Below are positions 37,500-41,468 of a stretch of 51,747 nt of DNA, piece after piece. A model generated the notes under the pieces. It was given only the letters and a program-made list of their open reading frames with translations. It did no database searches and was not told the origin of the DNA. Location of the stretch: NCBI GenBank assembly GCA_946409435.1, contig CAMJWJ010000005.1:1-51747 (forward strand). The letters run 5' to 3'. Every line of letters begins with the position of its first letter. The first letter of the stretch is position 1. Made by a program: the position numbers and the translations under genes. The DNA is from an uncultured Prevotella sp. GTDB lineage: Bacteria > Bacteroidota > Bacteroidia > Bacteroidales > Bacteroidaceae.

Positions 37500-40400
37500 T
37501 CAGTCATCTTTTAGTTCAAATCTTCTGGCTTCCGTTGCGGCTGCAATATTAATGACCTCTTGAATATCCAAAGCATTTATCTTGCCGTCACCGTTGATGT
37601 CATACTTGCTTTCTGCTGATTCGACTACGGCAGCATTGATGATTTCCTGAACATCCAGTGCATTGACGATGCCGTTGCAGTTGACATCACCTTTTTGCAA
37701 TATCATGGCTGCACAATTTTCTGTGACGTCTGCAGGTCCATAAGTATTATTAGTCGAATCATAGCTCCATACACCGCGAGGTGTCGACCCATCATAAGTT
37801 TGGCTTCCTACAATAAGTACGACATCAGGAGTATAGAAATTATTCGAACATATACTTGATCCGATAGACCAACCTATAACACCTGCTCCAAAACTGCTTG
37901 ACCCCGAACCTATAGTACTATTTATGGTGCAACCAGAAACCATATTGTCACATATAATTGTAGACGGATATGTATTACTTCCGAAAATGCCGCCAACGTC
38001 ATACGGACCTGTGACATCACCCTGATTCTGACAATTCTTGACGGAGCTATTTTGTCCTGTTATCAGTCCGACAATACCTCCAATCCAAAAGCCGTCAGAG
38101 ACAACGTTACCATAATTTTCGCAATTCAGTATATTACCTGCATCAAGGTCACCGGCAATACCACCTGTCATTCCATTCTCCGATTCGCAAGTAATTGCAC
38201 CATAGTTCTTGCAATTACTGATAGTACCCATGTTATCTCCGCATATACCTGCGACATGATACTTTGTGCATGAAACAGCGGCGAAATTGACACAATTGTC
38301 AATAGTTCCCTTATTTGATCCGGCAATACCTGCAACATTACTCGTGTAACCATTAATCTTGCAGCTCTCATCAATGGTGACGTTAGCTACTAAGCCATTC
38401 TTACCGATATAGCCAAACAGAGCCTTGTCTGTCGACAAGTTCATGATGCTGACCCCGTTACCGTCAAAATTGCCAGAGAAACCAATGACCACTTCATTAC
38501 CATTTGTATCGTATTCACCTCTTCCTATGGCCGTATAAGTAATGCCGCTGAAATCTATTTCAGCCTTGCCTACCTTAAAGTATGTGCCACTGTACGAATT
38601 TCCGTTATTGACATCTCTTGCCAACACCTTGAAATCTCCTATAGTATTAATGATGTATGGTGAATCGGCTGTCCCATCTCCTCCGCTAAACATTTCTGGG
38701 TCTGAGATCTGCTTGATACACAGGAAATCCTTCCAAACGTCAGCTTTCAAATAGAGATCAACACATCCTTCTGGTACGTATAAATACATGTTTTCAACAT
38801 TCGTAAATGTTGACGAACTGATTATAACTGGCTCAGCCATTCCTACCTTTACCTTCTCCATGTTCGAGCAACCGCTAAAACACCATTCGCCGATAGAGGT
38901 GATGCTTTGCGGAAGACTAATCTCTACGAGATTCGAAATGTTACTAAAAGCTCCTGGGGAAACGGATATAGTACCCTCGTCAATGGTAATAGCACTTCGT
39001 TCGGGCATTTCTCCCTTATATTTATAGGCTATTTTCCCAACATAGACGATGCCGTCTTCTTTGTCATTATACCACTGGGTATAATCAAAAGCCTGACTTC
39101 CAATATAATTGATAGTACTTGGGAAATCAATAGAAGCCAGATTTGTGCAGATAGAGAAAGCTGCCGCTCCTATTGAATGTACATTCTCTGGGATAACTAT
39201 AGACGTAAGACTGGTACATCCGCTAAACGAAGAATCTTCTATCTTGTCAATGGCTGAGGGAATAGTAAAAGATGTCAACGCTGTGCAGTTGGCAAATGCT
39301 GAACTGCCTATATAAGTAACGGTTTGTGGCAATGAGATAGTTGTAATACTGCTACATCCGGAAAATGTTCCCCATCCTATGGATTCGATACTATTGGGGA
39401 TGTCGACAGTTACCAAGTTCGAACAGCCTTCAAACATTGAACTACCTGTCTTTGTGAATCCATCTTTCAAAATAACAGTCCGTAGTTGTGAACAATTCTT
39501 GAAAACTTCGCTATAAATAGTTCTAACGCTACCGGCGATTTCTACGCTTTCCAAACCGGTACACTTCTTGAAAGCCTCATCGTATATTTCTGTTACACCA
39601 TCAGGAATAATTGCGGAAGTCAGTTTGTAGCATTGCTCAAAAGCCTCGGTTCCAATTGCATCTATTGATGAGGGTATTACTACGGAAGTGATATTAGTCC
39701 TTCTAAACGATCTATAACCGATACTTATAACTCTATAGCCATAAACAACAGACGGAATGGTCACATTACCTTCATAACTTGTAGAAATAGCTGCCGAGGA
39801 GCCATTACCAACCATACAAGTTCTTTCCGTGTTGCTTATGACTTTAAATGTCATGTCAATATCTTCTAAAGTCTTTGCTGAAAATGTATCTCCGTCCTGG
39901 AGCTGTGAAGGCATTTCAATGATCTCCATAAACTCCTTCCAGTAGTCGGCAGCCTCGTAGGCTGCCTTGCAGCCTGCGGGAACATAGAGCGTAGCGTTAG
40001 CACGATTGGAGAAAGTGAAAGAAGTGATTGCTATTGGCTCTGTTGCCTCGACAGTTACAGCACTTAGGTTGCTACAACCCCAGAAAGCAGAACTGCCAAT
40101 AAAGATCACACTACTTGGTATGACCACCGATTCTAAACTCTCCAATTCATAAAAAGCATAAATGCCTACAGTGGTGATATCGTCTGGAATCACCAAATGC
40201 CTGATGGCAGAGATGTTACCATCTGAAGTCTGCAGTAATAAGCTCTTAGCAAAAGATAACGGATTAGAACGAGTATAAGAAAATGAGGATTTGCACCAGG
40301 CACTGACGTCAGTGATGACTACTTGCTTCAATGCGTTACAATCTCGAAATGCATCTTCTCCGCTGAAATAGCATTTCGTTCCATCAAAAGTAATAGAAGT

Positions 40401-40892
40401 CAATCCTATACAATCTCGAAATACGTTTTTGCCAAATACCACAGAGTTCCGCCCTATCTTGACACTTTCCAATGAAGTACAATTGCGGACTGCACTGTTC
40501 CCGATGGAGGTCACATTGTCAGGAAATACCAAGTTTTTGAAACCAGAGTTATATAATGCATATCTATCAATGGTCGTCAGACTCGAAGGGAATTCTATAG
40601 TAGCCAGGTTAGTACAGCCAGATAATGCATATTGGTCGATAGCAGTCACACCAGTAAAGTACTTGAACTCGCTGAAGCTTGAAATCTCTGTATTGTTTTG
40701 GAATACGGTCCCTATACTTGTAACGGCTGCCGCTTCCTCTTCGCTGAGTTCACCATCACTGTTGCTGTCCCAGTTTGCTACACATATTGCTTTCACGTTG
40801 TCGTCTGCAAAGGTGACATTCTGTGCAAAAACATTTGTTGTAATCATGCTGATGATTACTGCATACAGGAACGTTAATCTTACTTGTTTCAT
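37500..40892 (-). CDS. BspA-type leucine-rich repeat protein with GLUG-like repeats and C-terminal dockerin-like domain
   Basis: Many LTSITIPxxVTSIGxxAFxxCxxL repeats; GIVG/GIAG GLUG-like block; GDVNCNGIVNALDVQEIINAA...YDINGDGKINALDIQEVI. Confidence 0.92.
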   Translation of the reverse strand: MKQVRLTFLYAVIISMITTNVFAQNVTFADDNVKAICVANWDSNSDGELSEEEAAAVTSIGTVFQNNTEISSFSEFKYFTGVTAIDQYALSGCTNLATIEFPSSLTTIDRYALYNSGFKNLVFPDNVTSIGNSAVRNCTSLESVKIGRNSVVFGKNVFRDCIGLTSITFDGTKCYFSGEDAFRDCNALKQVVITDVSAWCKSSFSYTRSNPLSFAKSLLLQTSDGNISAIRHLVIPDDITTVGIYAFYELESLESVVIPSSVIFIGSSAFWGCSNLSAVTVEATEPIAITSFTFSNRANATLYVPAGCKAAYEAADYWKEFMEIIEMPSQLQDGDTFSAKTLEDIDMTFKVISNTERTCMVGNGSSAAISTSYEGNVTIPSVVYGYRVISIGYRSFRRTNITSVVIPSSIDAIGTEAFEQCYKLTSAIIPDGVTEIYDEAFKKCTGLESVEIAGSVRTIYSEVFKNCSQLRTVILKDGFTKTGSSMFEGCSNLVTVDIPNSIESIGWGTFSGCSSITTISLPQTVTYIGSSAFANCTALTSFTIPSAIDKIEDSSFSGCTSLTSIVIPENVHSIGAAAFSICTNLASIDFPSTINYIGSQAFDYTQWYNDKEDGIVYVGKIAYKYKGEMPERSAITIDEGTISVSPGAFSNISNLVEISLPQSITSIGEWCFSGCSNMEKVKVGMAEPVIISSSTFTNVENMYLYVPEGCVDLYLKADVWKDFLCIKQISDPEMFSGGDGTADSPYIINTIGDFKVLARDVNNGNSYSGTYFKVGKAEIDFSGITYTAIGRGEYDTNGNEVVIGFSGNFDGNGVSIMNLSTDKALFGYIGKNGLVANVTIDESCKINGYTSNVAGIAGSNKGTIDNCVNFAAVSCTKYHVAGICGDNMGTISNCKNYGAITCESENGMTGGIAGDLDAGNILNCENYGNVVSDGFWIGGIVGLITGQNSSVKNCQNQGDVTGPYDVGGIFGSNTYPSTIICDNMVSGCTINSTIGSGSSSFGAGVIGWSIGSSICSNNFYTPDVVLIVGSQTYDGSTPRGVWSYDSTNNTYGPADVTENCAAMILQKGDVNCNGIVNALDVQEIINAAVVESAESKYDINGDGKINALDIQEVINIAAATEARRFELKDD

Positions 40893-41063: not shown

Positions 41064-41102
41064 TGTTTCTGTCACAGAAACACTCTGTTTCTGTGGCAGA
41101 AA
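41064..41102. promoter_or_regulatory. Two palindromes with centres 22 bp apart
   Basis: tgtttctgtcacagaaaca (9-bp perfect arms) and tttctgtggcagaaa (6/7). Confidence 0.6.
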
Positions 41103-41219
41103 TTCCAGTAAGTTCGCATCGTACTGAAAGACATTGTCACCCTCTGCCGTTTCAGATTGACATGAAACCGTAATGAAAAGCACTACTACGCGCGTATAGT
41201 TGTCTTTTGCACTTTTTGA

Positions 41220-41320
41220 CCCTCACCCGACGCACCCGCAGCACCTAAACTTTATCTGATGTAACATGCCGGATGTTACGCCACGCAAAGTATAGGTGCT
41301 GCGGGTGCGTCGGGTGAGGG
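41220..41320. repeat. 27-bp perfect GC-rich inverted repeat with nested hairpin
   Basis: ccctcacccgacgcacccgcagcacct (41220-41246) / aggtgctgcgggtgcgtcgggtgaggg (41294-41320); inner gtaacat-gccgg-atgttac (41261-41279). Confidence 0.95.
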
Positions 41321-41437
41321 CTGTTTTCCCCTTTCGCTATTATAATACGCGCGCGTACAGACATCGCCTTTGTCGGGCTAAACCTTTGAATATCTCTTTG
41401 AATATCCGGTGCGATACAAACAAAAAGCCGTTTTCCT

Positions 41438-41468
41438 TTTGTATTTCTCTCACTTTTTCGTATCTTTG
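41438..41468 (+). promoter_or_regulatory. Bacteroidetes-type promoter of metH
   Basis: TTTG (41438-41441), 19-nt spacer, TAtcTTTG (41461-41468). Confidence 0.75.

What the first reader, a model, noticed from the sequence alone, without database searches (positions are those of the whole stretch)
41220..41320. 27-bp perfect GC-rich palindrome with nested hairpin upstream of metH
The arms are perfectly complementary, extend about 7 bp further with one mismatch, and enclose a separate 7-bp hairpin. Outside are alternating CG tracts tacgcgcgta (41187 region) and acgcgcgcgt (41347 region), themselves self-complementary. Far larger and more GC-rich than a normal terminator; could be a MITE, a cruciform, or an excision scar beside the AT-rich LRR gene.
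Basis: partly seen in the sequence, partly recalled or inferred. Interest (0 to 1): 0.7.

Follow-up and report, generated by a model that had tools for sequence, protein, structure and literature searches.

The report
High-copy hairpin repeat in Prevotella-like bacteria
The palindrome is one copy of an apparently undescribed family of non-coding repeats scattered between genes in some Prevotella-like bacteria; each copy is a long hairpin whose arms are built from tandem 9-base units that differ between copies yet stay complementary, flanked by unusual alternating C-G-rich stretches.

Summary
The palindrome is real and far beyond chance: 28-bp perfect arms, one mismatch, 5 more pairs, and a nested 7-bp hairpin (DNA fold z = -13.6). 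It is not single-copy. It belongs to a high-copy, non-coding, intergenic repeat family: about 40 places in its own genome, mostly at contig ends, and 26 of 300 sampled same-genus species, but no other genus of the family that was sampled. I found no description of it. Members share three things. (1) An alternating purine-pyrimidine (CG)n-type tract of 12 or more bases in 48 of 51 copies. (2) A conserved TATAATAG-type, A-rich flank. (3) A hairpin whose arms are 2-3 tandem 9-mers: self-identity at lag 9 is 0.71, against 0.25-0.37 at other lags. Arm sequence changes between copies and species, yet pairing is kept: 22 of 26 pairs show double changes and 94% of cells pair. The window copy differs from the main family of its genome at 11 arm positions, all compensated. 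RAYT linkage, a dedicated terminator role and metH regulation were tested and not supported. Best reading: a REP/MITE-like interspersed element whose hairpin is the maintained functional part. The mobilising enzyme and any host function are unknown.

The parts
41183..41359 (-). whole element as matched by the family model (reads left-to-right on the minus strand)
   Evidence: cmsearch with R1: 109.1 bits, E 6e-17, model positions 1-132; the window copy was one of the 11 sequences used to build R1
41346..41359 (.). alternating pyrimidine-purine tract TACGCGCGCGTACA (14 nt), outer end 1
   Evidence: sequence; same class of tract in 48 of 51 family copies
41321..41347 (-). conserved flank TATTATAATAGCGAAAGGGGAAAACAG
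   Evidence: flank-only pattern finds 18 sites in 4 genomes, reversed control 0; 14 of the 16 with enough sequence carry a palindrome scoring 18 or more, at offset 0-6 from the motif
41293..41320 (.). palindrome arm 2 (28-bp perfect complement of arm 1)
41261..41279 (.). nested hairpin GTAACAT-GCCGG-ATGTTAC inside the loop; module GATGTAACAT..ATGTTACRCCACGCAAA shared with other copies in the genome
41220..41247 (.). palindrome arm 1; diverged tandem 9-mers CCCTCACCC GACGCACCC GCAGCACC
   Evidence: lag-9 periodicity of family arms
41199..41219 (.). opposite flank (GTTGTCTTTTGCACTTTTTGA); TATAGTTGTC-type end motif together with the adjacent tract
   Evidence: same motif at ends of copies in G013, G022, G097, G099
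41187..41198 (.). alternating tract TACGCGCGTATA (12 nt), outer end 2

Best explanation
This is one copy of an interspersed, non-coding, high-copy palindromic repeat family restricted, as far as sampled, to some species of one Prevotella-like genus. SHOWN: a shared layout (alternating Y-R tract, conserved flank, hairpin with 2-3 tandem 9-mer arms, opposite flank, and then an alternating tract or a tail with about 20-nt tandem repeats); dispersal in intergenic gaps; arms that diversify between copies but stay complementary. INFERRED: the family behaves like a REP/MITE-type non-autonomous element. Copies are made at new intergenic sites by a factor acting in trans that recognises the hairpin, in single-stranded or cruciform form, and possibly the terminal tracts. 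The arms stay complementary because the hairpin is the recognised part, helped by template-switch correction between the arms. Any effect on metH or the LRR gene is incidental.
For: Copies at about 40 places in the window's genome, mostly at contig ends, as dispersed repeats that break an assembly would be. Family in 26 of 300 same-genus species; only G000 itself matched among 101 genomes of the family. Near-identical copies at unrelated loci: L106/L107/L109 about 97-98% over ~300 bp, L099/L103 98.8% over 166 bp. Flank-only recruitment: 14 of 16 sites with enough sequence carry a palindrome scoring 18-32 against shuffled maxima of 7-11, with differing arms. Covariation: 22/26 pairs with double changes, 94.0% paired against 73.0% shuffled and 35-48% slid. 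Lag-9 self-identity 0.71. Alternating tract of 12+ nt in 48/51 copies against about 0.02 expected per copy. Palindromes changed less than their own flanks between two close species, 2/456 against 33/1040. Window copy: 11 arm differences from the genome's main CCCACACTT family, all compensated. metH upstream regions in two relatives lack it.
Against: No transposase or integrase is tied to the family. RAYT genes in G031 and G090 carry different palindromes; only one RAYT (G099, L117) has a copy nearby. No clean empty site with both flanks intact and no target-site duplication was found: the G051 loci that lack the element in G313 also have different neighbouring genes. Several copies sit at the same place in G051 and G313, so turnover is not fast. 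Arm complementarity could partly come from gene conversion rather than selection. Most copies were found with a pairing model, which favours paired arms; the flank-only test is small.
Confidence: 0.6

Rival explanations
1. A chromosome-structure element, like the gyrase- and IHF-binding BIMEs of E. coli. The Z-prone alternating tracts and the cruciform-prone palindrome absorb supercoiling between transcription units or are bound by a nucleoid or topoisomerase protein; the 9-mers are its binding units.
For: The alternating pattern is kept while its letters vary (runs up to 36 nt); very stable fold; one position of each 9-mer is almost invariant (alignment columns 53, 62, 71 are C-G in 98-99 of 99); intergenic placement.
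Against: No significant excess of convergent gaps over background (16/43 against 3/11, p 0.73). One sampled species (G189) has the hairpin without the tract. Not detected in most species of the genus.
Confidence: 0.2
2. An RNA element: a strong intrinsic terminator or 3' stabiliser of neighbouring transcripts.
For: GC-rich hairpin with T-rich stretches on one or both sides in many copies; covariation would suit an RNA stem.
Against: In co-directional gaps the more T-rich side points with transcription in 11 copies and against it in 9. The window copy lies between divergent genes. Loops run up to about 80 nt. No Rfam family reached its gathering score.
Confidence: 0.12
3. A mutational by-product: 9-mer slippage plus template switching between arms keeps making neat palindromes without function.
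For: 9-mers within one arm are near-identical; arms are homogenised; one chimera with unmatched arms exists (L102).
Against: Conserved flanks at fixed spacing, about three units in many species, near-invariant unit positions and conserved outer tracts are not expected from slippage alone.
Confidence: 0.08

Closest known systems
REP / REPIN elements with RAYT transposases (PMC3733652, PMC2817692, PMC3116915)
   Same: High-copy, extragenic, palindromic, non-coding; families differ by species
   Different: REPs are 20-40 bp with stems of mostly 6-9 bp and a GTAG or CGTC tag; here the stem is 18-28 bp of tandem 9-mers with alternating tracts, and no RAYT linkage was found
BrickBuilt MITE of Porphyromonas gingivalis (PMC4596501)
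   Same: Intergenic non-coding repeat in Bacteroidales; contains tandem units (23 nt there; an about 20-nt array in the tail of some copies here)
   Different: BrickBuilt has IS5-type terminal inverted repeats (GAGACC...), a TSD and 19 copies; in the passages read no 9-mer palindrome or CG tract is described
PINSR of Prevotella intermedia (PMC4755523)
   Same: Intergenic, high-copy (177-184), Prevotella-lineage-specific, non-coding
E. coli BIMEs (from general knowledge)
   Same: Extragenic palindromes proposed to interact with topology proteins
   Different: Different sequence, size and host phylum; interaction untested here

Membership tests
REP/REPIN with RAYT | Short palindrome ending in an unpaired GTAG or CGTC tag | tested here: not met
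   Window copy read directly: stem foot is ...GAAAACAG|CCCTC and GAGGG|TCAAAA on the minus strand, no such tag; stem 28 bp
REP/REPIN with RAYT | RAYT gene flanked by the same palindrome | tested here: not met
   30 Y1_Tnp loci: one (G099, L155/L117) has a copy close by; RAYTs in G031 and G090 are flanked by unrelated palindromes. The window genome had only a sub-threshold hit, but it is 78% complete
MITE | Short, non-coding, high copy number | tested here: met
   about 130-340 bp, no ORF tied to it, about 40 places
MITE | Terminal inverted repeats | tested here: inconclusive
   Outer tracts are inverted copies (TACGCGCG), but alternating CG tracts are self-complementary by nature
MITE | Target-site duplication / empty site | tested here: inconclusive
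   No clean empty site in G051 against G313
MITE | Cognate autonomous IS with matching ends | not tested
   Only the Y1_Tnp/RAYT family was searched for
Intrinsic terminator | Hairpin followed by a T tract in the direction of transcription | tested here: not met
   11 with, 9 against, 1 tie in co-directional gaps
PINSR | Sequence identity to the 188-bp consensus | not testable with these tools
   Consensus is in a figure; the named-genome scans returned no answer
Known RNA family | Rfam gathering score | tested here: not met
   Only sub-threshold hairpin hits

The most novel reading that the evidence does not exclude
The arms carry a modular 9-base recognition code read by an unknown protein that evolves quickly. 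Several codes coexist in one genome and both arms change together, while Z-prone alternating tracts act as a second, structure-based recognition signal: a mobile or chromosome-organising system defined by DNA shape and unit code rather than fixed sequence.
Probability: 0.15. Interest if true: 0.85.

Novelty: new variant of a known kind. Interest (0 to 1): 0.6.

Why it matters
If right, a set of Prevotella-like genomes carries an unnoticed repeat class that breaks draft assemblies, preserves DNA structure while its letters change, and offers a natural test of what keeps long palindromes and Z-prone tracts in bacterial chromosomes.

Tried and rejected
RAYT as mobiliser: PF01797 survey and palindrome scan around the genes; not supported. 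Dedicated terminator: T-rich side not aligned with transcription. Preference for convergent gaps: suggested by a raw count (21 of 49) but not significant against background. metH leader or regulator: the metH loci of G007 and G006 lack it and have other upstream genes. Plasmid or phage origin: no match. Known RNA: none. Transition-only test of the tracts: abandoned because odd-length indels shift the phase. Named-species scans of genome contigs gave no answer, so species names are missing and 'Prevotella-like' is my inference from gene content, promoter style (TATCTTTG at 41461-41468) and general knowledge.

Full report
OBSERVATION. Arms 41220-41247 and 41293-41320 pair perfectly over 28 bp, followed by one mismatch and five more pairs, with a 7-bp hairpin nested in the loop. 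It is by far the strongest palindrome of the 51.7-kb window (score 30, next 16). Both RNA and DNA folds lie more than 11 standard deviations below dinucleotide shuffles. The flanking alternating tracts are TACGCGCGTATA (41187-41198) and TACGCGCGCGTACA (41346-41359).

IT IS A REPEAT. A search of the window's own genome (190 contigs, 78% complete) with the element found partial relatives. One of these, used as query, found 102 matching pieces at about 40 places, most within a few hundred bases of a contig end. A copy can be split over two contig ends, so the number of physical copies is probably lower than 40. The breakage itself is what a dispersed repeat does to a short-read assembly.

ANATOMY. 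Copies from several same-genus genomes (G022, G034, G051) have one layout. From outside in, on the minus strand of the window: an alternating pyrimidine-purine tract; a flank of the type TATTATAATAGNGAAAGNGGAAAACA; a C-rich arm; a variable loop; the complementary G-rich arm; a second flank, often ending ..ACTATA; and often a second alternating tract. The arms are tandem 9-mers: CCCACACTT (main family of this genome), CCTACCTAT, CCCGCTTAT, CCCATGTCG, GACCCTTCT, GTGTCCTAT and others. Over 85 arms, identity at a lag of 9 is 0.71, and 0.25-0.37 at lags 1-8 and 10-15. In G051 and G040 one side runs on into a tail with an about 20-21-nt tandem array, and the other side ends at the tract.

THE PAIRING IS MAINTAINED. 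A covariance model was built from 11 copies. On 99 matches (both strands of many copies, so not independent), 22 of 26 pairs show changes on both sides. 94.0% of cells pair, against 73.0% when partners are shuffled and 35-48% when slid. Because that set was found with a pairing model, I also recruited sites by the flank alone. The pattern gave 18 hits in four genomes and none with the reversed control. Of the 16 with enough sequence, 14 had palindromes scoring 18-32 against shuffled maxima of 7-11; the other two scored 11 and 9, little above their shuffles. The window copy is a good single case: its 26-nt arm differs from the main family of its genome (CCCACACTTCCCACACTTCCCACACC) at 11 positions, and all 11 are matched in the other arm. 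Unmatched arms do occur (L102 in G022 is a chimera).

ALTERNATING TRACTS. Within about 45 bases of the element ends, 48 of 51 copies have an alternating run of at least 12 bases, up to 36; the background predicts about 0.02 per copy. The letters vary (CG, CA, TG, TA) while alternation is kept, the pattern expected for Z-DNA-prone sequence. The model contains a short CG stretch, so detection is somewhat biased towards tracts, and G189 copies lack them.

DISTRIBUTION. 26 of 300 same-genus genomes have hits at E <= 1e-4. In a sample of 101 genomes of the family covering 30 genera, only the window's own genome hit. Large surveys score few candidates per genome, so these are lower bounds. There was no match in plasmid, phage or viral collections (the viral scan used one short exact pattern).

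DOES IT MOVE? For: near-identical copies at unrelated loci and many copies per genome. Against or open: two close species, G051 and G313, share eight copies at the same place. Where a G051 copy has no counterpart in G313, the neighbouring genes differ too, so there is no clean empty site. About five informative loci show such a break of gene order at the gap holding the element; without a genome-wide baseline this is only a hint of recombination. Between those species the palindromes changed less than their flanks (2/456 against 33/1040, one outlier locus left out). The nominal p of 0.0006 overstates this, because 18 of the 33 flank changes lie in one locus.

FUNCTION TESTS. RAYT: genes exist in many of these genomes, but with other palindromes or none; one is near a copy. 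Terminator: the direction of the T-rich side is random with respect to transcription (11:9). Gene-orientation preference: not significant. metH: the loci of G007 and G006 lack the element and have other upstream genes. A Bacteroidota-type promoter motif TATCTTTG (41461-41468, from general knowledge of such promoters) lies about 100 bp beyond the element on the metH side, so the element does not overlap it.

CONCLUSION. The family and its maintained hairpin are well supported. That it is REP/MITE-like and moved in trans is the most likely mechanism (about 0.6), with a chromosome-topology role as the main rival (0.2). The literature searched gave no description of it; the nearest are REP/RAYT elements (PMC3733652), BrickBuilt (PMC4596501) and PINSR (PMC4755523). 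Subscription literature was not searchable and PINSR could not be compared by sequence, so novelty is provisional.

Noticed in passing
window 41066-41102: A second, separate palindrome (TTTCTGTCACAGAAACA ctc TGTTTCTGTGGCAGAAA) between the LRR gene and the element; it overlaps the only terminator-like call of the gap.
   Followed up: no
G051 loci L121, L123, L125, L132, L136 against G313 loci L233-L245: Gene order differs between two close species right at gaps that hold the element in G051; possible recombination hot spots.
   Followed up: partly
L160 2125-2203 (G090) and L174 762-833, 1735-1808 (G031): RAYT-type transposase genes flanked by their own, unrelated palindromes (e.g. ATGTAACAGGGGGACGGTTCTTTTGTTACATCG).
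   Followed up: partly
L105-L109 (G040), L125-L137 (G051): Elements run on into an about 20-21-nt tandem array (GTGAGTGGCCTCCTCACGACC; TCTCGTGAAAAAATATAAGCC), different in each species.
   Followed up: partly
L009, about 40-140 bases upstream of its match (G000:C4): The window's genome also has a palindrome of GACCCTTCT-type 9-mers, the unit typical of G040, so unit types are shared across species.
   Followed up: no
window 37500-40892: BspA-type LRR protein with a C-terminal dockerin type I domain.
   Followed up: no
G189 loci L221-L223: Perfect 9-mer hairpins without the alternating tracts, with A-rich TTAAC/AAAAAA-type flanks: possibly a second sub-family.
   Followed up: no
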